Below are positions 16,636 through 61,487 of a stretch of 64,000 nt of DNA, in pieces. The notes beneath the pieces are model-generated. The model made no database searches and was not told where the DNA came from. It saw only the letters and a list, made by a program, of their open reading frames with translations. The translations under genes were made by a program, and so were the position numbers. The first letter of the stretch is position 1, and every line of letters starts with the position of its first letter. Source of the stretch: Cruorifilaria tuberocauda (lineage: Eukaryota; Nematoda; Chromadorea; Rhabditida; Onchocercidae); the NCBI GenBank assembly GCA_013365365.1, contig JABVXU010000043.1, positions 1-64,000 of the forward strand, in the 5' to 3' direction.

Positions 16636-18495
16636 TCAAGCGGTATCATAATCTTCATCATCTTCATCTTTCGATAGTAATTCGCTTAGCGATCGCTGTA
16701 TCCCTCTATTTTCTTGCTGAAGTCGATTTAGTTCCGCTGTTTCCGCTTCCAGTTGTTCCTGACGTGCCTAAATAACTTCTTTTAATAAATTTTAATCAAT
16801 CTGTTACGACCTTTATCGAATATTAATCCACCGTAAATAAAATGGAAATAATGGAAATTGCGTAAACTGATAAAATTACTTAGAAAAACGATTTTTCATG
16901 AATCCCTAATATAATGTACTTTTCAAGACCTCCATAGGAAATATTTCGAAATTTTTACATAACATGATAAAAGCTTGTATACCTTTTCAATAAGCTTTTG
17001 CTGCATTAAATATAACTGATCTTCCGGAATGCCACACTTATCAAGTCGTGAATTTTTTCGCTTCAATTTATTTTCCGCAGCTATTTTACACTCACTAAGC
17101 ACACTATCCGCTGCTTCGACATAATCATATGGAAATGTCAAATTTATTAAAGCTGCAAAAAGTATTAATGAAATATAATTCAACAGAAATCTTATGATCA
17201 TTTCCAAAATGTCAGAGTAGGTCGTAAAGATTAATAACAAAGAAAATTAAGTCAAATACTAATGCAAATGATTTAATTTAATATGCTTCTGACAATATAA
17301 CATTTATAGAGTTATCAAAAGAAGAAGAAAATAGCGATTTAATCATGTTAAAAACAAAAATCAATTCTCTACAAAAGATATCACAATAAAAAAGCTGATT
17401 TCTAATTTATATTATAAAAGTTCGCATTAAAGATTTCCCACGAACATATTTCTACAAACTGGAGTTCTGAATAGTCTATAACTGATTACTGCTCTACAGT
17501 TTGTTTAATATTATACTAAATCCATTTCGAACAATGTAATATATTTTATGTGTTATTAACATTCAGTGGTTTTATATCTTTGTTAAATGAGCATTTTGAA
17601 TTTGATATATTTCGAGCACTTTCTTCCAGTGAGTTTCAAAATTTTTTATTTCTTATATTTCAAATTGTACAACTCACTATACATATTTACGTTGAAAATC
17701 GCGAAAAATTAATTCATTGGTGAGAGTATTTCCTAAAGCTTACTTTTTCGTATGCGCTCATTTTCATTAATGGATAAATGAAAATCTCTGGCATTTCTTT
17801 CTGATTTTTGAAACAAAATGCAGTGTCAAAAATTTTCGAAATTAATCCTTGAGGGAGGATGAAATCTATGACCTGACAAAATAATCAACGTAAAAATTAA
17901 GACATATACGAAATATTCTTTTTCTAGTTCTGTTTTTTAACGAAATATTAATCTCTGTATTAAATGATGCAATTATGGTGCAAAAAATGAATATATATTA
18001 CTTTAAAAAACTTTTCTAGATACGATTAACCTCGCACCAATTAATGCTGATGACGAAATAAGGTTCAATGCTCTCATTGCTGATTTAAGATCCGATTTTT
18101 TTTGCATTTCTTCACAAAAGACTTTTGCCCATCTTATTCGAATAACTTATAAGCTTTCAGTTTTAAATTATTTAAAATATTGTGATATGTTATACAGGCG
18201 TATTGCAACTGCAGTAACATTTGATATCGTACATTACTTCAGTTTAAAGTTAATTCCTGAAAGAAACATTAAAATATAACAAACCTTTCTGAACATGTTC
18301 GTGATAAATCGTTTTGCGCTGATCATCCGCTGAAATCCGCTGGGCCTCACGCGACACATGCCTTACAAATTCCACACAACAAGCATTCAGTAATTCACGC
18401 GATTCATTGGCCACCCTCATTTCCGGTATTACATCTTTGATTATCATATTTAGACCCTTCTGAGGTAAGCCAACTTCGTTATCTTCATCACCCAT
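16636..18495 (-). CDS. DR1: Negative cofactor 2 beta (NC2-beta / DR1)
   Basis: Three exons (18285-18495, 16983-17152, 16636-16767) join with matching phases to 513 nt, 170 residues; human DR1 has 176. The protein starts MGDEDNEVGLPQK. A histone fold follows at about residues 8-95, with the family hallmarks VANESRELLNACCVEF and the KTIYHEHV motif near the end of helix 2/loop 2. A basic stretch (KLKRKNSRLDKCGIPEDQL) corresponds to KRRKASSRLENLGIPEEEL in the human protein. The tail ends in a short acidic run (DEDDEDYD). NC2-beta pairs with NC2-alpha/DRAP1 through the histone fold, binds TBP on promoter DNA and blocks TFIIA/TFIIB entry. The human protein has a longer Gln/Ala-rich tail, which is much reduced here. 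The exons and family match are seen directly; the function is known from the family. Confidence 0.95.
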
Positions 18496-32609: not shown

Positions 32610-40667
<8,058 letters not shown>

Positions 40668-43368: not shown

Positions 43369-46300
43369 TTAATTCTTGACTAAAGCAAAAGCACTCAGCA
43401 ATTCTTCATCTGTCAATTCAAACAGTTTCCGATTATTTAGCACTTCTTTCATTTCTAGAATTTCACTTCGATTACGTGTTGTTAACGTACACTTTTGAAC
43501 TTTAGTCTTATTTATTGCTCTCGCTTCTCTTATTACATCCAACAGTAACTGCTTTGATATACTGTCTCTTTCAACTATTTTCTCTTCAGCTTCTGTGCTT
43601 GATAAATGCACCGCAATTTTATTGGTTTTCAACATCAAATCAACAAAGGTAGTTGCTGAAAAAATTGATAAATTGAAAAAAAATTAAGAAAAATTGAAGA
43701 AAAAACAATTCGAAACTTTCCTATATATATGCTATCCGCTCTTGAAAGATTTCCATCGAAAAATTATGGGATGGTTCTGCTTGAACGAGAATTAAAAAAA
43801 ACACCGTAATTTGTAGATATATAACGAGTTATGTGCAAATAGAAAAATCTCGATTTAGATGAAAGTGATTAGCTAAGAAATTAGCATTGTAGCAGTGATG
43901 TAACAGAAAAAAATTTAACTGAATTTTGACCTTTCGTAGATATTAAGGAACTGCGAACAAAATCTGGCAAAGGAAAGTAGTTCGAACTGATTCCGTTACA
44001 ATCTACATCGAAACATTTTTGGAAACAATGTAATTTAACTAAGTCCACAATCCAATATATTCCGTTACTTCGATGCTCGCGACTAATATTGAAACAATAA
44101 CGACAATTTGCAATCTAAAAATGTAGGTACTACTTAAAAACATTTTTTTGTAGATTCTAATCAGTTTTTCCCACAGTGATGCTTATGAAAGTAATGAAAT
44201 ATTAATAACTTTAATTTCTTTCACTAAATAAATGAAGTAATACTGGGAAGAAAAAGCGCCTCTAAACTATACATAATAAATAATACATAATACACTATAC
44301 ATAATAATAATAATAAACATACATAATAAATGATATGTCGGGACATCGTAAATTTATTCATTGATAACTTCCACTGTCGAATGGATGCATTATTCTTCCA
44401 TCGTCTAAAGCATATTCTATTAATCCAAAAGGATAAACGGATTAATTACTGGCAAGTAATTGAAACCTGTTTATAGAGATGATATGTTGGTCCAATACAG
44501 GAAAAGGTGAAGTTGCTCCATAGCCAATCATGTAAACTACGTTTTCATTTGATGCAGGAACTGAATTACTGATAATTAGTCGATAATAACTGGCGATTGG
44601 AAAACTAATAAAATCGCATTTCTAGACTAAATGTGTCCTAACATTCTCACATCAAATCAAATTAGATAGTTAAAAAAAACGACATAAGATATTCGGCAAT
44701 CAAATGTTTAGATTCTAAAACTTCTACAAATAAGGTTTTGTAAAGTTAAAGTTGTGAAATTAAACAAGTTTAATGAATGAATAATTATTCCAACCACTTA
44801 GTTAAATTTCAAAACATACTTCGCGCAGGAAGTGTAAGGATTTTTGGTTCTTTACCGTAGGTAATCGAATATTCGCCATTTTTAGCCGTTCGGGCATGAA
44901 AGATTTCGGCAGTATCATACTTGGCAGGTACAATTAATGAATCAAGGAAAATTTGTTGTCTTGAATAGCATTTCTTATGAGCATAGAAATGACAACGCTG
45001 TGCAAGTACTAAAGGATTATTTTTTCCCAATTTTGATGACAGATACAAACGAAAGTTACGATTCCTGGAAGGTCAAATGAAAATAGAACTGAGAATTGAC
45101 AGCAATGGTCAGCATTTAAGAAGATTGCCAAATTGTAGCATAAAAAGAATTTTAAGACTAGCTAATATAAAGAAAACGTAATTTCGATTAAGATGACATC
45201 TAGATAATTCAAGAAATGATAGTTTCTGTTAGTTTTGAGGATCAAAAATTTGAATTAGAAATTCTATTAATGGAAAACATTTTTTTAATCCAATTACATC
45301 GCAGGGAGTTTAAAGCCACGCTTCAGTAATCCGTAATGAATGGTCAAAAGTCATAACGAAAATTTTCATTTCTAGTCCAGCTTTTTTAAAGCAAATTAAT
45401 TTCAAAATTTATTTTAACTAAAATAGTACCGCAACCAAATACCTCTTATCAGCTCAAATTATGGTATATGAAAAAATGAAAAAAAAAATTTACACAGAAT
45501 AAACAGTCGTATCAAACAATGTCGTCAATTTGGTTGCATCCGCGTTCCAAACTAAACATCGACCAGATGATACCATTTTTTCCTTCAGCTGTTGTATAAA
45601 AAATTTCATAGAAGTATTTGATGGAAATAAATGGCTATCACTTAAATGGACGATAATATGCTCACTAAATTTTGTAGTCGTTGAAGCATCAAGTATCAAC
45701 ATTTCCTGTAAAGTAATGACAATGACTCATCACAAATTGAAACCGCTTATCATTGTTGCATGATAAGGTTTAGGGATTAGTTAGAAATTATCAAATCAGA
45801 ATTATCCTCTTTCTTGCTCAACTTTCTAGATCTGATGCTTTCAATTTCTGAAATTTTAAAAATTTATAGCACTCAATTAGGATAGAATTAAATTGGACGA
45901 AACAGTAAATCTACTTCCTATCTTTTCCGACAAGAAAATTAAAACACCAACTTTTTCTGGATTCAGTTCAATATCAAATATTTCCGTGAACACTTCACTA
46001 ACGCAGTCATTGAAATCCTTAATCAATTTTCCCTCTTCAATATAAGGGTTTGTTTCTCGATAAAATTCGAGATCAAAATAAAGATGCGCGGGACGATTTT
46101 GTAGTATAAGTTCGTAAAATGAAACATCATGTTGTTTTTTATACCAGTACCAGAATCGCTCTACTGTTGATACAAGATACTGCCTTTGTCCTGTACAAAA
46201 TTTAACAAAGAATAAGAAAAATATCAATTTGCACAAATGAATTGTATATAAAGAAACTGCAAACAAAAAAAAATTTATTTTCTCGATAAAGACCGTGCTA

Positions 46301-46974
46301 AATTTCACGATGTACTTGGATGGCTTACAAAAATCTGATGTACCATTTATTTTGAAATATCATTTTGGAACTTACCATTTTGGAACCATTTCATCGACGC
46401 TTAATCATTTTATAAAAAATTTTGAAACTATTTCTGTCTAATACTTCACAAAGAATTTCCTTAGTTTTCAGCTAAAAGTGCATTCAGTTTAACCAGCCTG
46501 GATGATGAATGGAATGTTCGAATGCAAACACTCTTGCCATTGGTCCTTCCTGCTCACATTTGAGTAATGCATCATTCTGTCGCTTGTAAATTGCAAAACA
46601 ACCCAATGATTCGTCGAAAAGATTTTGTTTTGGCTTTTGCTTCTCCGAAAATACCGATTACAATTCAAAATGATAGCATATACCCATTGAAAAATTTGAC
46701 TTCCATTATCGAGTCAAGAAATAGTATTCTGTATGAGGACTAAAGGAACTGATAAACAATAGCTGAAACAATTTGTAAATAATAATTTACAACGCTTCAA
46801 TACTTGATAAATTTACCGTTCATAGTTAAATAACTATTTCATCGGAGTTGACCGAAAATTTTAGAGAAAGGAATTAATTACCAGTGCTTTACTTGGAACA
46901 ATTTGATCTGTAATTTCTGACTGTCCATCCTTACCACATGCTCCATAGAACCATATTTCTTTATCATCGACCAT
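43369..46974 (-). CDS. PRIMPOL: PrimPol: DNA-directed primase/polymerase (AEP family) with UL52-type zinc domain
   Basis: Nine exons (46882-46974, 46498-46642, 45952-46190, 45494-45705, 44820-45064, 44467-44560, 44323-44416, 43931-44114, 43369-43655) join to 1593 nt, 530 residues; human PrimPol has 560. Human-like stretches are RVFAFEH..GQRQYLVST, LYFDLEF, LDASTTTKFSEHIIVHL, NRNFRLYLSSKLGK, SPFPVLDQHIISIN and FPLPDFV. Catalytic motifs: D119-L-E121 (motif I), S173-E-H175 (motif II) and D224 (motif III, LFDTTVYS). The zinc ligands C381, H388, C408 and C413 have the same spacing as human C419, H426, C446 and C451. The C-terminus (FELTDEELLSAF) is acidic-amphipathic like the human RPA-binding motif. 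PrimPol re-primes DNA synthesis beyond lesions in nucleus and mitochondria. Exon 1 and the exon 2 donor are the least certain parts. Confidence 0.93.
44267..44330. repeat. Simple TAATACATAA-type repeat in PrimPol intron 7
   Basis: Irregular repeats of 'acataata' and 'taa' fill this stretch, directly after the donor of exon 7 on the minus strand (gtatgt at 44322-44317). Confidence 0.8.
46496..46497 (-). promoter_or_regulatory. Probable GC splice donor of PrimPol intron 2
   Basis: With donor cca-g|gctgg and acceptor tacag|gacaaagg the junction reads HHP-G-Q-R-Q-Y-L-V, matching human D-G-Q-R-I-Y-L-V. A GT donor two bases downstream (ctg|gttaaa) with a later acceptor (caaag|gcag) is also in frame but would replace GQR with W. 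Confidence 0.55.
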
Positions 46975-47617
46975 TCTGCAATTATTTGACTAAATAAAAT
47001 TCTAAATTTATCAATTCGACTGTCAAATGAGTTGAAATATTGACATAGAGATGATTGAATAAAAAACAGTGACAGTTAAGCCGTATTAAATTTGGAATAA
47101 TGAATTATTTCAGCAATTCATGAATTATTATTTCTCCTGTGTAACACAAATCAAAAAAAAATTTGTAACAAATGTTTTATTGAAATAAATTAGGCTAACA
47201 AATTAATGTAATATTGCTTGATGATTTTTTATACGTCACATTCTCAATTCATATTTTAAAATGTTTTTGCATTAAAAAAAAATATCATCCATCTACAGAT
47301 TGTGTTGATGAATAATCTATGCATGAGATTATTAAATCTGTTGAATCAAACCGAAAGAGAAAGTATTCAGATATGACAAAAAGCATGAACGATATTTCAG
47401 ATTATTTGGATAGTTTACAAAACATCACTGATTTTATCAAATTTCAAGAATCCATACATGAACATTTACGTCATTATCATAACGGATATAAAATATGGTA
47501 GTTCAATATTTACTATCTTTCCTAGCAATGTCATTTTTAATGACATTTTTAATACCCAGTTATTTAATAATATTAAGATACTGTTAATACAAGAACAAAA
47601 GAATCATAATTAATAAT
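46975..47617. other. Short gap between mrpl-23 and PrimPol genes
   Basis: Both flanking genes are on the minus strand, 0.64 kb apart. The ATG of PrimPol follows ttgcag-a, which could serve as a spliced-leader acceptor. A 60-codon + strand frame at 47319-47501 does not look like a gene. Confidence 0.45.
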
Positions 47618-50093: not shown

Positions 50094-53000
50094 TTATAGC
50101 TCGGTATGTTCGTCAGTTGCTTCATGTTCAAACTTCCTTTCTTCTGCATATTTTTTTGCTCTTCCATCAAGCAATGTCTTTATTTCGGAGTCGTAATCTT
50201 TCCACTCGGGAATAATTCGTATGGCTGAGTCGAGTTTCGGTTCTTTCGTCTGGGGATTGTTGCACTAAGAATAAAACCAACATAAAGTGTAGGGATTTTA
50301 TGGTTCAAAATTCATGATATGAAAATCTCGCTAGAATTCCTTTTGGAAAATCACATTAATTAAACTGTATTAATAACTAATACTTTAACTATTTCCTAAA
50401 ATATTTCCATGGCAAAATATTTATATGCATAGAGAAAAGGAGATCAAATAATAAGAAATGAATAATAAAACTATTTTGAAAGGATTGAGTTATAAATATT
50501 TAAATTTATTAACTACAACAGACTGGTTAAAGAAAATTTCAATCGAAAAGATTTGACAACAGACCAAATCAATCGTCTTTGCCTTTTCCTTCGAAGCATC
50601 GTCACACCATGTTTCACACCAAAGCCATTCTTGCGGCAATGATTTAATACGCACTTGGTGAATCATATTATTTGGCAAATCCTGTAAAACAAAGTAAAGC
50701 TAGGGAAAAATAAAAAAATTGGTGAATAAAAATATTATTTGCACTGCAAATCAATTATAGCAGAGAGAAAAAAAGAACCTGATCAAGATTTGAAAGGCTA
50801 TTTGGATCAGCACTCAATCCTTGATACTGACCACGTAAGCGATCACCAGCAGCCACTTGCCGAAATTTAGCCAAATCGATGACATAAAGTGCGCTAAATC
50901 TTTTTTTATTAATTTATTTATTAATGGTTTACAAAGTAGAAATCCCGAATACAAGACACAGAAGAAAATTTGAAAAATTCACCTAATGTGATATTTGCGA
51001 CCAGCAAGATGATTAGCCCAATAACCTTTTTTCCAGAACCTGAAACCATCCATCGATGTTCTGCTATCACAGAATGGAGTAAAACCATAAGGAGCACCTC
51101 CCAAATCCAACTCCATCAATTCCATCAGATCTGTCCGAACTATTTGATCGGCATCAACGAAAATTATTTTTCGTACATTTAACGGGAACAAAACATCCAA
51201 GAAAAGTATTTTGTACCTATAGAGAGATAAAATATGTAAAACAAATACAATGCCAAAAAGATCAGATAAACTGATAAAAGAAATAAGATTTATGTATCAG
51301 TTTCAATAAATTTTAGAAAATCCATTTTCATGAAATTATTTTAAAAAAGCACAAACTTGAACAGTAATTTAAGTGAAATAAATACGAAAAAAGTTGATTG
51401 TTCAGTTAGCATATTTATTTGTTGTAATATACCTCACCCCCACATGACGCGCTGCTTTTCAGTCTGCTGATGTAACCAACGTGGCCAACGATACTCTATA
51501 AATTCATATTTGAAGCCGTAATGCCTAGCCATTTTAGGCAATGTCTCCTGGAATAAATTACGTTCAGAAATCAATTAATATACAATTAACTACATAAATC
51601 TAAAAATATGGTAAAATGGAAGCTCACTAACCTTAAAATTAGGCGACAAGTAATTCTTCAGCAACCAGAAATTAACGGGATGTTTCGTATGTTTCATTAC
51701 ACTCAAAATCATGATCCGCATAAAACGTTCATATAAATGTCCTGATGCCAAGGAAAAAATATTAATTGCGTCATATTTTTCACCACCGCTTCTAGAAAGC
51801 AAAATTTAAGAAATAAGTTGCCAAAAACTTTAGTGCTAAGCTTAATTTTCAAATTTTGGTCGAGATTACGAAGTTTTGGTTGAGTTACGAAGCAAATGAC
51901 CTGATAAGGAAGGTAATTCTAAAAAAGTTTAACTGGAATTCAAGAATAATTTTTAAAAAACTAAAGTATAACGTACGATGATGATATACTGCTCCAAACG
52001 GAGTGATGGTCTTCACTCTCTTCTGATTTTTCCTCATTCAATAAATTTTCCTTTTCTTTCTCCTTTTTTTTGGCGACCCGAATACGAATTGTTCGACCAC
52101 TGAATGAATCTATTAGCACATTTACTCCATTCTCATCCTCTGATTCTGTATTTACATGACTGTAAAAATATTTCAGTTAAGCTATCAAAAATAATTTATT
52201 TCACATTAACGGTGGAAAATCAGATTATAAATAAAATTAATCTGCATTCTTTATTCTTTCATTCGTTATCTAAATTTGTTTGCTGATTTATTCAGCTTTC
52301 AAGAAGATATTTCCAGGTGCAAAATTATTTACGCAACTTTGCATTTTTTATTGCTATAGGCCAACATAACAGGATATCAATATATATGTTTTTAGATAAT
52401 GCAAAAATAAAGATCAATATTGAATAGTGACTTACTTACCTTACAATGTTGTAGATATCCTTCGATTTACCATTACGAAGATTTAAAATCCAAGCACCCG
52501 GATCAGCTTTTAACTGGAAGTAGCCCTGAACAGAACTTATTAAGTGCAAATGACAGCAACAAGCAACAAGTGAAAGTGATAAAACTGATGAGATTAAAAA
52601 TATTGTCGAAACATTATAGTGAACGAAAATCCAAATACAGTTATTATTATCAAACATTTTAATTATTATTATAATATAAATAATTACTGAAGAAACTTTA
52701 TTTTTGATAATCACTTAAATGAATTATTGAGGAAACTATCGATATGCAAATTCATTTAACTCCCATAGCTTCAATGCTTATTCGAAAAACTGAACTGAAC
52801 TGTTGCTTACCAAATTGGCCATAACAATTGTATCATAACGATTCGGGTTTGTTAGTGTACCCAAAGTAAACTGCAGACCACGCGGGGGTGATCCTGTCAT
52901 ATCATCAAAGCAGTGTCCTTCTAGAAGGATATGCTCAAGTTCAAATTTGGCGAGCACGTTTCCTACTACCTGGAAAATCTCCATTTTTATATATAACATA

Positions 53001-56000: not shown

Positions 56001-59000
56001 TCACTTTGCTTCATCAGTAATTACCATGATTTTTGAAATTTTTGTCAAGTACAATCACACAATCATTCCGGGAATTGAAATGGTCGGCATTTCATATTAA
56101 ACTTCAACATATAAATGTTCTTTGAACACACCTGTGAAAGTATCCAATTCATTACATTATCTTGATCTTTTAGTCTTTTTTCCATAACTGCCTTTTGCAA
56201 ACGTGATGTAACACGCATTATTTCCATCATCACAGTTTCTTCAAAATGGTCCCCAGTTATCTATAAAAAAATCTGTTCAGTAATTGCAACACAAAATTTG
56301 GAAGGAAATTTAGACAATAGTGAAAGCCGTGATGAACACACGAAAACTTTGTGCTCTAATAATAATTTCTCTCTTTTTAAAAGATAACGGAAATGACTGA
56401 AAACTTTCAGCTCTAAACCATAACCTAACTGTGTTAAATCATTGTTTAATCAATATCTCTGACATAACCTGTAGACGTGATAATATATGACAGCAGTTGC
56501 AGAGGTTGAAGAAATTTGTAAACTGCTCGAAAGAAAAATATTTAAAAAGTCAATATCTGTTCATTATTTACAATGAAAAAAAGTCAAAGAATCAAGCTTA
56601 CGCCAGAATCGTCTAGAATAATACCATTCAAAAGCACTTTCGGTGTAAAGCCAAGCCCACTGTCGCGAAGAAATTTATAACCTACTGAACGACCATTACC
56701 ATATTCGGAGCTACCACCAAATACGTCATTTGGATCATGGTTAGGATAATGCACTTCGAAATATGACAAGACATCTTTCGGAGATACAGACTTTTCCTTT
56801 AGAATCTAAAAAAATATGGTGTTAATCATTTCTGAACTAAATTTTGCTTTGATGCTAAACAATTGCAATGTCAAGCAATGAATAACAAAAAACGGATGAA
56901 AACAGAAAAGTTGCTAATATATAAGATAAAGCGGTAATGTGATGAATGGAAAAGAATGAAGTTGCTCAGGGAAGGACTAATATGGAAAAATAGAAAAAGC
57001 AAGGTTTCACGCTACGTCCATAAAAAATTTGACAATTTTTAACCTCAATTAAAACATTCAACGCTTTCTGAATACCATTATTTATTTTGATAAAATTGTA
57101 CAAGTTCAACATGGCGACCGAAGCATCATCAAAGCCAGTTATATCTTTTTCATCATTAGTCACGAAAACAACTCCAAGTCTGAAAATAAGATGGATTGCT
57201 CCAAATACAAAACAAAAAAATTTCACTATCGATTTCAACTTCTTTTGTTCGCGACAACTACATTTCTAAACTTGTATGTGAGAAATAGTTTTTAATGATA
57301 TCAACTATCACTTATTATATATCCAAACACAGAGTAACAGAAAATTAGATGAATCCTACGACTTGAGAATTCTATCATTATATTGTAGAGGATAGTCCGA
57401 ACCGCTAACAGAAAAAAATTACCTTTAACGATTTTATGAAATTTTCTACTTGACAACATAATATTATATGCATAACATCGAATGGAGTTCAACCTTCAGA
57501 AATTAAGAAAGGAAATACCTAACAGGCATCTCATGAGCATAGAATTGCAGCGCATATTGCAATAAATCCCGAGTTTCTTTTTGAGATGGATCAACAACAA
57601 AAATCTGGAAAACAGTCTTATCGCTGAATTTGCTATCTTAAGCATAGAAATACAAATGAGCACAAATGAATGAGAAATGAAAGACTGTAGGAATAATTAC
57701 TAAACAAGTATATCTAAATGAGAAAAAGTTCGAAACATCATCGTTACTCGATATTATGATATCAGAAAAATGCCGGATTTGTAAAGCAAATCAATGTTAC
57801 AATTTACAAATTTGAAATTAAAAATAATCTTTACACAATATATTGTTTTTGATCTTTCAAAAAGTAAATTAGTAAATATTTTTCCTTTACGAATAAATAT
57901 GTTTCAAGAAGTTAGCTTATTATTACTAAACATTAAAAATAAAAGTTCATTGCCATAGAAATCACCAAGGTGAATAAATTCCTCGCAATTGGTCGAAGCA
58001 TTCCAGGAAAATAGGGTTGAAGCAGCAAACCGACACTATTTGCCCATTGTCGATATTGTTTGTCGGTATCCAAATTATTTAGGTACTGAAACAGATAATA
58101 TTTCCATTAAATTTCGGTGATTTAGGCCAGAAACTATTTTTCAGCAGAAATTGAAGTGGAAAGGTAAATGTTTCAAAATATGTTCCCCTTTTAATTACCA
58201 AAACCTCATAAAACTGCAAAAGGCCTAATCATCTATATTTTTAAATACAAAACTAAATATATCTGTAAGATATTGACTGCCAAATTTACCTCTGGAGATG
58301 CTGGTCTGAAATCCAGTGCATAAGATACACGTTCATTGCTTAATTCGAGGTCAATTAACATGGAAATATATTCATTCTAGAACGACATGCTTCACTTCCG
58401 GAGAAAACATATGAAAAATTGCAAAAAGCTTACCGCTTCGGCAATAAAATTATTTATTTATAAAAATGTCATCATGATTCAATACTGTGCACTGGTGTTT
58501 TATACATCAGAAGTTAGAAAAAGTCATGAAAAATATACAATTTAAAGGATAACCGCGATTAAAATGAATATTAACATTGCAAATTTAATAACATTTTCAT
58601 TAAATTAAAACCTGTTAACCTTAATTCCCATACGAAAAAATCCATTTGCCAATTTTTCCTCTTGTTTCAACATATCAAGCACTTGAAACACATCCAGAGC
58701 ATCAACATCCACCATGATGCCATTGATAAAAAAAATTGATTCACCTTCTGACACTCCATATTCCATTAACTGCTCCTGATTTGCATTAACCTGTAAACAA
58801 TTATATTTTCGTAAGTCGAAATAGCTTAATTTCTCCTGTTTTTTATTAAGAAACAAGAAAACTCCTAAACAAAAAAGAACAATCATTATATACAATGTAA
58901 CGTTTACAACTAATTTTATTTCTTATACGTAAAATAACCTCAGATATGAATTCTTTCAGCACCACCTGCCGTGACAGTGACCTGGCAGCAAGCGGGAAAT

Positions 59001-61487
59001 TCTGACTAGAATCCACCATGATATTAAGAGCTTTCTGTGGACCAACTTGAATAATTCTCTGAGCAGCCTGATAGCTAAGTTCTTGCACCTGCCATACTTT
59101 TAGCGGGGTGAGCTCATCGCGTTCTAGCAAATGCAATCGAAACTGCTCAATTGAATCTTTCAAATCACTATATAACCTGCTGCAATGTAAAGAGTTCATT
59201 AAATATTCTCACAATTTCTAAAATTCCAGATTTCGCGATATCACTTTGACCTACAATCATCTGTGATTTTTGATTATATCAATAAGATACACTACAAAAT
59301 GGTACCAACTAGTAATTTTATAGATACTAATCAATAATGTTTTCCATAAATCTTTCTTCAGAGACACGTCCGTATGAATTTGAAAAATTTTGCAAAGTTT
59401 TAAAAAATAGAACAGTCACCGCAATGTACTGAAATTGAATCCAAAGTTATCTTCTTCGTTATCCGCATATTCTTCTGAACTTTCCTCCACTGTTATCTTA
59501 TCTATAAAAGCATTATTTTGGATTTATAATTTCTTGATTCAATAAAGACTGGATTAACTGAAAAAGATTAAAAAATTGCAAAAGACGAACAAATAAAAAG
59601 AAAAAAAAGTTATACAAGAAATCTTCAACTCACCGACTACAGCACTGCTATCATCAACAGCTTTGTATTCTGTGCTTTTGATAGCTAATTCAACACCGTA
59701 ACCCGATAACAAAAGCTTATCATCGCGAACATCCTAAAGCTTGGATTCGGACACAGTAAATAATCGCGGCAATGATTAGTTTATTAATAATTCAACTGTT
59801 GACTTAGGTAAAGTTGAAAACTTACTTTAACAAAGTTTCGAAGGACATATTTAACTTTGCCGCTTCTCGATAGTGCTTTTGCGGCTAAATGAAACTTTCT
59901 CCACATTGCACTGGCAAACTCTCCATATATAATTAAGGTAACATTATGTTCTTTAGTTACTGGAAATACATGATCAATAGAATATATTGTCGGTGCAGGA
60001 CCCCTGAAAACTCAAGAATACGACATAATATATGTCACAATGATGAAAGTGATTTGTAAATACTTGATAATACAAAAAAAAAAATGCACCTCACACCATT
60101 TTCAATAATCTTTTCTAAATCATTTACATCACACGTTATAGTGCCATGAATATCAGCAAACGCAGCACACGACTTCTTCCTTTCGACACCTAACTAAAAC
60201 AAAAAAAAAAAGCACGAAAATATTGAAAATATTAAATTTGTAAAAGAAAACAGTTTCAATATCTTTCCGCTACTTTCTCTCTTTGCGATATTTGGCAAAC
60301 TAAAAAAGATAAGCATGTGATGATGCAAGAGTTAATAATAACATTATTCCTCTTTCAAAACGATAACATTAGTGGCATTCCTGCAGTGTAAAAATTTCTA
60401 AAAAATCTAAATTAGAAGAGAAAATTCTAACGTTCTGAAATAGCAATACGGTTGGTGAATGAGCTCGCAAAGACAAGGCAAATTTTAAAAGATTGACACG
60501 AGCTTCCTGTAACAAATAGCCTGCTAAACGAACAGATAAATCGTACTGTTTAGCATCACTGTCTGAAAGTTAACTTTTAGCTATAATAAAAAAGCTCCGT
60601 AAGTCTAAAATCGTTTTCAAAAATTATTAACCATTGGTATGCAAGTATAATAATGGCTCAAATATCAAAATTTCAAAATGACGAAAATCTATTTAAAAGA
60701 ATTATTAGTATTTAAATTTCAAAATCTTTTTAAAACTACTACTACTAAAAAATTTCTGTCCGGATCAAAATTTAAAAAGTAAAAGAGAGACAAAATACTA
60801 GATTAAATTACATGGTTCAAAAGTTGGTGCGTCAATAGCCATATTTTAACTGTATAATATTGACGGATACACTAGATTAGCCCAGATGGGATTGAACAAC
60901 ATTCACTAAGCAAGGAAGATAATGCTTTCAAGCAAACATAGCATTCATATTTTATGCTTTGATTATAAGATTTGTCACATTTTTTTGATGTTTTAATAAA
61001 TTGTTTAAACACTCGGTAACTTACACGTATGCCACTCGCTAACATTGAGTTTCTCAACAATTTCATCTATATAGGCCCAAAATAAACTGTCACTTTCTTG
61101 AGCCATGAATTCACTACAAATTATAATGCAAAAGAGAAGAAAAATTAGAAACATAATATGCATTCTTTAAATTTCTTGAAAATGGAAGAAATTGATATTA
61201 GAAAGAAACATATGTTTCTCCTGCCAACTTTTATTTATTTTGAATCCATTCATTTCAATTCTAAAATTAACCCAAAACAATCTCCTAATTCATCCCATTC
61301 ACCATGTGCTCATATCTTGAAAAAAATTGAACTGAATTTTCCGATTAACAACATACCTGACTTCTGCAATAAATGAAGTCTGCGACCATTTTGCATGCAG
61401 TGATGTAATGACCGATTTTTTGCTTACTGCGGAATCAATCGCGTAAGGAAATGCTAATAGGGTAATAACTAGCCATAGGCTTTCCAT
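50094..61487 (-). CDS. uggt-1: UDP-glucose:glycoprotein glucosyltransferase
   Basis: About 31 exons can be read from the ATG at 61487 to the stop at 50094, covering the whole family length (~1500 residues). The N-terminus ([20 protein letters not shown]) is a signal peptide. Then come thioredoxin-like folding-sensor regions, for example exons near 59830-60005 ([13 protein letters not shown]), 59630-59735 ([12 protein letters not shown]), 58930-59180 ([13 protein letters not shown]), 56590-56810 and 55290-55440 ([15 protein letters not shown]), and the beta-sandwich part at 52812-53365 ([20 protein letters not shown]). A charged linker follows at 51960-52165. The GT24 catalytic domain starts near 51790 ([15 protein letters not shown]), with the DxD metal site in [12 protein letters not shown] (exon 50985-51218), then HLAGRKYHI and [13 protein letters not shown] re-glucosylates misfolded N-glycoproteins in the ER so that calnexin/calreticulin rebind them. 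The C-terminus HTEL matches an ER-retrieval signal. Exon edges were not all fixed base by base. Confidence 0.97.

What the first reader, a model, noticed from the sequence alone, without database searches (positions are those of the whole stretch)
43369..46974. Full-length PrimPol with intact catalytic triad and zinc domain in a nematode
Seen: motif I D-L-E, motif II S-E-H, motif III Asp, and C-H-C-C zinc ligands spaced 7, 20 and 5 residues apart exactly as in human PrimPol. Known: PrimPol re-starts stalled forks and is reported as absent from C. elegans and Drosophila. If this is a nematode genome, the gene was kept in this lineage and lost in Caenorhabditis. That would give this worm a repriming route for damage tolerance and mitochondrial DNA that the model worm lacks.
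Basis: partly seen in the sequence, partly recalled or inferred. Interest (0 to 1): 0.75.

Follow-up and report, generated by a model that had tools for sequence, protein, structure and literature searches.

The report
Ordinary PrimPol gene in filarial worm
This is a normal, apparently intact worm copy of PrimPol, the enzyme that restarts stalled DNA copying; related copies are found in many roundworms, so its absence from the model worm C. elegans looks like a late loss.

Summary
On the minus strand, nine exons (46974 to 43369) encode a 526-residue PrimPol with motif I DLE, motif II SEH, motif III Asp and C-H-C-C ligands spaced 7/20/5, as in human PrimPol. Searches find one copy in the 71.7 Mb assembly. 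It is about 71-76% identical to seven filarial orthologues and lies among filarial worms inside a nematode PrimPol group, so contamination or recent transfer is unlikely. Orthologues were found in Trichinella, Plectus, ascarids, pinworms, tylenchs, Strongyloides, strongylids, Pristionchus, Diploscapter and even Caenorhabditis auriculariae, a basal member of that genus. Seven other Caenorhabditis species are in the same database by their replicative primase, but none is named among the 120 listed PrimPol hits. Simplest reading: ancestral presence, loss inside Caenorhabditis. Expression and activity are untested. A known kind of gene in one more species; the modest interest is that "nematodes lack PrimPol" should not be inferred from C. 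elegans.

The parts
46882..46974 (-). exon 1 (N-terminus, WFYG motif); TTGCAG just before the ATG could be a cis 3' splice site or a spliced-leader site
   Evidence: (E 0.004); orthologues have extra N-terminal residues, so the 5' end is uncertain
46498..46642 (-). exon 2; probable GC donor (CCAG|GC). A GT-AG alternative ends at 46494
   Evidence: most filarial orthologues read HHPG[QR]RxYLV, matching the GC-AG splice
45952..46190 (-). exon 3: motif I DLE (D119, E121). With the alternative donor it starts at 46183
45494..45705 (-). exon 4: motif II SEH (S173, H175) and motif III Asp (D224)
44820..45064 (-). exon 5: end of the AEP domain (NRNFRLYLSSKLGK)
44467..44560 (-). exon 6: linker, SPFP motif
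44323..44404 (-). exon 7: start of the zinc domain region (SIRQW), behind a 62-base intron
43931..44114 (-). exon 8: C-H-C-C zinc ligands (C377, H384, C404, C409), UL52-type domain PF03121
43369..43655 (-). exon 9: C-terminal tail with an acidic-hydrophobic DEELL motif, then TAA

Best explanation
A single-copy, vertically inherited orthologue of eukaryotic PrimPol in a filarial nematode. Shown: gene structure, catalytic and zinc residues, family match, position in the tree. Inferred: the AEP domain (D119/E121/D224 binding metal, S173/H175 binding the nucleotide) with the UL52-type zinc domain makes short primers ahead of stalled forks, letting replication restart and leaving a gap; recruitment to RPA-coated single strands may use the C-terminal DEELL motif, which has the same D-x-x-hydrophobic-hydrophobic spacing as D551/I554/I555 of human RBM-B. 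PrimPol was present in the nematode ancestor and was lost within Caenorhabditis after the C. auriculariae lineage split off.
For: Gene model and residues; PF03121 over cut-off; human PrimPol by sequence and, for the A. viteae orthologue model, by fold (top ten PDB hits all human PrimPol chains, best E 3e-21); all nine key residues in invariant columns of the 24 rows I chose; nematode PrimPols form one side of a branch, SH-aLRT 94, with the window in a starred 9-row filarial group; one copy found; orthologues in many nematodes; the same database holds the replicative primase of 8 Caenorhabditis species among the 120 listed of 3305 hits, but only C. auriculariae is named for PrimPol among the 120 listed of 178 hits.
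Against: No transcript or activity data. The RPA-like motif is short, its pattern was written after looking at the tails, and it is in 11 of 28 tails examined; it is absent from the strongylid and C. auriculariae tails and also misses the Xenopus tail. In the wider 67-row set six of the nine key residues are only 90% or more conserved; I did not sort out which rows differ, but one (P0009) is a gene model that visibly skips motif II. C. elegans itself is not named among the rows listed, so its absence rests on the papers. The nematode branch (94) is not starred, and Diploscapter does not sit next to C. auriculariae in the quick tree.
Confidence: 0.93

Rival explanations
1. Contamination or horizontal transfer from a non-nematode (host, plant, virus).
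For: Reviews suggest that PrimPol was first acquired by horizontal transfer in an early eukaryote (passages of PMC5295015, PMC4538821).
Against: Nested among filarial orthologues; spliceosomal introns; the own-genome search finds it only on this 259 kb contig; the nearest relatives listed are filarial.
Confidence: 0.02
2. A decaying pseudogene copy that is no longer expressed.
For: Unusual GC donor in intron 2 and an unresolved 5' end; the longest end branch (0.19) of the 9-row filarial group, whose others are 0.095-0.18.
Against: No stop or frameshift in the nine exons as spliced and all nine catalytic and zinc residues kept; C-terminal motif kept; Setaria (0.28) and Thelazia (0.47) have longer branches.
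Confidence: 0.05
3. PrimPol gained separately in several nematode lineages instead of being lost in Caenorhabditis.
For: C. elegans and Drosophila are reported to lack it, so its distribution is patchy.
Against: Nematodes form one side of a branch, with the order Trichinella, Plectus, rest, as expected from descent.
Confidence: 0.02

Closest known systems
Filarial PrimPol orthologues (A. viteae, Cercopithifilaria, Elaeophora, Onchocerca, Litomosoides, Brugia, Loa), named in databases 'DNA-directed primase/polymerase protein' or 'Herpesviridae UL52/UL70 DNA primase family protein'
   Same: 71-76% identity, same domain order; C-terminal D[DE]xLL motif in 6 of these 7 (not in the Loa model)
   Different: Window model lacks 8 or more N-terminal residues and uses a probable GC-AG intron 2; the orthologues' DNA was not seen
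Human PrimPol (5L2X, 7JK1)
   Same: Motifs I-III aligned, zinc ligand spacing 7/20/5, AEP fold for the A. viteae orthologue
   Different: The stretch between motifs II and III is shorter in the nematodes aligned: 49 residues from H175 to D224 here, with a gap that Xenopus, Capitella and Hydra fill; tail diverged
Caenorhabditis auriculariae PrimPol (P0031)
   Same: Catalytic and zinc residues, 39% identity
   Different: Shorter, 445 aa; different C-terminal tail ending WDSLFEQ
Replicative primase PRIM1 (PF01896)
   Same: Same AEP superfamily (recalled)
   Different: A separate gene on contig C336 of this genome, cut by the contig end

Membership tests
Eukaryotic PrimPol | AEP motif I DxE, motif II SxH, motif III Asp | tested here: met
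Eukaryotic PrimPol | UL52-type C-H-C-C zinc domain C-terminal to the AEP domain, spacing 7/20/5 | tested here: met
Eukaryotic PrimPol | Phylogenetic placement with animal PrimPol | tested here: met
   (quick tree of 48 chosen rows)
Eukaryotic PrimPol | AEP fold like human PrimPol | tested here: met
   on the A. viteae orthologue P0001; the spliced window protein itself was not accepted for folding
Eukaryotic PrimPol | C-terminal RPA-binding motif (RBM-A/B) | tested here: inconclusive
   DEELL near the C-terminus; the pattern was chosen after seeing the tails, shuffled window tails match in 1.6%, and it misses the Xenopus tail; no binding data; human residues
Eukaryotic PrimPol | Primase and translesion polymerase activity | not testable with these tools
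   needs recombinant protein
Eukaryotic PrimPol | Expression and nuclear/mitochondrial localisation | not testable with these tools
   no RNA-seq or imaging here

The most novel reading that the evidence does not exclude
PrimPol is ancestral and near-universal in Nematoda and was lost once, inside Caenorhabditis after the C. auriculariae lineage split off, so the model worm's damage tolerance is a derived state that does not represent parasitic nematodes, and the genus holds a natural before-and-after pair for testing what repriming does in an animal.
Probability: 0.75. Interest if true: 0.45.

Novelty: new member of a known kind. Interest (0 to 1): 0.3.

Why it matters
The reviews I saw (passages) give C. 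elegans as an example of an animal without PrimPol. The gene is in fact found in many roundworms, so damage tolerance in parasitic worms may include repriming, which C. elegans work cannot reveal. Its presence in C. auriculariae narrows the loss to within one genus and makes the question of how animals cope without PrimPol testable between close relatives.

Tried and rejected
Tried: PF08996 as a first family search was a wrong guess of mine and irrelevant (one hit on another contig, just over its cut-off). A GT-AG version of intron 2 (525 aa) was used for and later replaced by the GC-AG version (526 aa), because most filarial orthologues read HHPG[QR]RxYLV; my first attempt at that alternative was out of frame. 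A search for an upstream first exon (GT donors, exon at most 75 bases, within about 1.6 kb) gave three candidates, none like the orthologues. Species identification was not achieved: the closest full-length orthologue is 76-77% identical, so none of the listed named species is the source; one paper search (listing only) did not settle it. Contamination and recent transfer were considered and rejected. C. monodelphis and C. sonorae could not be checked: neither is named in the lists. Literature: searches showed, by titles and starts of abstracts, no paper about nematode PrimPol in the held open-access library; most listed papers were not opened. Passages (not whole texts) were read in PMC5295015, PMC4538821, PMC4419789, PMC8136793, PMC7991662, PMC7714529, PMC7613824, PMC4027207 and PMC5457501. 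Subscription papers are not held.

Full report
What is there. On the minus strand of the window, nine exons between 46974 and 43369 join into an open frame of 526 codons plus stop. Introns are 62 to 429 bases. Seven of the eight are GT-AG; intron 2 is best read as GC-AG (CCAG|GC ... ACAG|GA), because this gives HHPGQRQYLV where most filarial orthologues read HHPG[QR]RxYLV or close variants, whereas the GT-AG alternative gives HHPGWQYLV. A search of the own 71.7 Mb assembly with the A. viteae orthologue gives nine matches at E <= 0.01, all at this locus and one per exon, exon 1 being weak at E 0.004, and PF03121 matches only here, so one copy is present as far as these searches show.

Key residues. 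D119 and E121 (LYFDLEF), S173 and H175 (KFSEHII), D224 (LFDTTVY), and C377, H384, C404, C409. The ligand spacing 7, 20, 5 equals that of human C419, H426, C446, C451 (passage of PMC4027207). In an alignment of 24 rows that I chose from the hits (21 nematodes including the window, plus Capitella, Hydra and Xenopus) all nine residues are in invariant columns (numbering there is one lower, from the 525-residue version). In a wider 67-row set motif I D and E and the last zinc Cys are invariant and the other six are at least 90% conserved. I did not sort out which rows differ; one of them (P0009) skips motif II in its gene model. Pfam PF03121 scores 33.6 bits against a cut-off of 21. By sequence the only PDB matches at E <= 0.001 are two human PrimPol sequences, E about 1e-23.

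Fold. The spliced window protein was not accepted for prediction, so the A. viteae orthologue (P0001) was folded in a 67-row alignment: mean pLDDT 78.7, pTM 0.54, most of the catalytic and zinc regions above 90, the N-terminus, linker and parts of the tail below 50. The top ten PDB matches are human PrimPol chains, best E 3e-21, about 32% identity over some 250 residues; herpesvirus primase, poxvirus E5 and ASFV PrimPol follow far behind.

Relatives. Of 159 homologues found (120 listed), the best are proteins of filarial and related worms, many already named DNA-directed primase/polymerase. Orthologues were also listed in ascarids, pinworms, Dracunculus, strongylids, Auanema, Pristionchus, Mesorhabditis, Diploscapter, Steinernema, Strongyloides, Panagrolaimus, tylenchs, Bursaphelenchus, Plectus and Trichinella. 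I did not check which sequenced nematodes lack it. A quick tree of 48 chosen rows (31 nematode, 13 other animal, 4 plant/alga/fungus) puts all nematodes on one side of a branch (SH-aLRT 94, not starred), with Trichinella and then Plectus outside the rest and the window in a 9-row filarial group (98, starred). Five rows have long branches, and the placement of Steinernema, Strongyloides and Diploscapter is unsure.

Caenorhabditis. The search with the C. auriculariae protein lists 120 of 178 hits. As a control, the replicative primase of the same filarial genome was searched: of 3305 hits, the 120 listed name C. auriculariae and seven more species (C. tropicalis, bovis, angaria, briggsae, brenneri, remanei, sp. 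36). Those proteomes are therefore in the database, and a PrimPol of ordinary divergence should have been seen. C. elegans is not itself named's list; its lack of PrimPol rests on the reviews. C. auriculariae belongs, with C. monodelphis and C. sonorae, to the basal clade of the genus (passages of PMC7991662). Its PrimPol sits on a 671 kb contig and groups with rhabditid and strongylid proteins, so it is unlikely to be contamination. I infer one loss inside the genus; C. monodelphis and C. sonorae were not seen in either listing, and synteny in C. elegans was not examined.

Mechanism. From the homology, the enzyme should make primers downstream of stalled forks. In human PrimPol the zinc domain is needed for primase activity (abstract and passages of PMC4027207), and its ligands are intact here. 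Human PrimPol is recruited by RPA through C-terminal motifs in which D519/F522 and D551/I554 are key (passages of PMC5457501). Most filarial tails end in an acidic-hydrophobic motif (LTD[DE]ELL), in a helix predicted with low to moderate confidence in the A. viteae model. The pattern D[DE]x plus two hydrophobics, which I wrote after seeing the tails, is found in the last 45 residues of 11 of 28 proteins examined, and in 1.6% of shuffles of the window tail (1.6-12% for the tails that have it). Strongylid and C. auriculariae tails have a different acidic-aromatic ending, and the pattern misses the Xenopus tail, so the motif is suggestive only. The stretch between motifs II and III is shorter in the nematodes aligned than in Xenopus, Capitella or Hydra. 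I did not test for a mitochondrial targeting signal.

Verdict. Its biological reading holds in outline, but retention is common among nematodes, not an exception of this lineage. Four reviews state that C. elegans lacks PrimPol (passages), and no paper on nematode PrimPol was seen in the listings (most listed papers not opened). The finding is a new member of a known family, with a modest evolutionary point.

Noticed in passing
window 46191-46497 (intron 2): Probable GC-AG intron: orthologue sequence fits the GC donor better than the nearby GT donor.
   Followed up: partly
window 46974-46990: TTGCAG lies just before the ATG (one base between), while orthologues have 8 or more further N-terminal residues; either a spliced-leader site or an unplaced first exon.
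   Followed up: partly
window 50979-51296 and 58846-59208 (-): Exons matching the glucosyltransferase 24 and thioredoxin-like domains (PF18404, PF18401), probably one UDP-glucose:glycoprotein glucosyltransferase gene (inferred).
   Followed up: no
window 35759-36094 (-): PALP-family enzyme exon (PF00291), looks like a cysteine synthase (inferred).
   Followed up: no
window 18253-18492 (-): Histone-fold exon (PF00808), looks like the DR1/NC2-beta repressor subunit (inferred).
   Followed up: no
P0059 (Heterodera schachtii): PrimPol annotated as one 773-residue protein with triosephosphate isomerase (PF00121 + PF03121); fusion or merged gene model.
   Followed up: no
P0012 (A. viteae, 513 aa): A second A. 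viteae entry joins PrimPol with a PF00276 domain, probably a merged gene model with a neighbouring gene.
   Followed up: no
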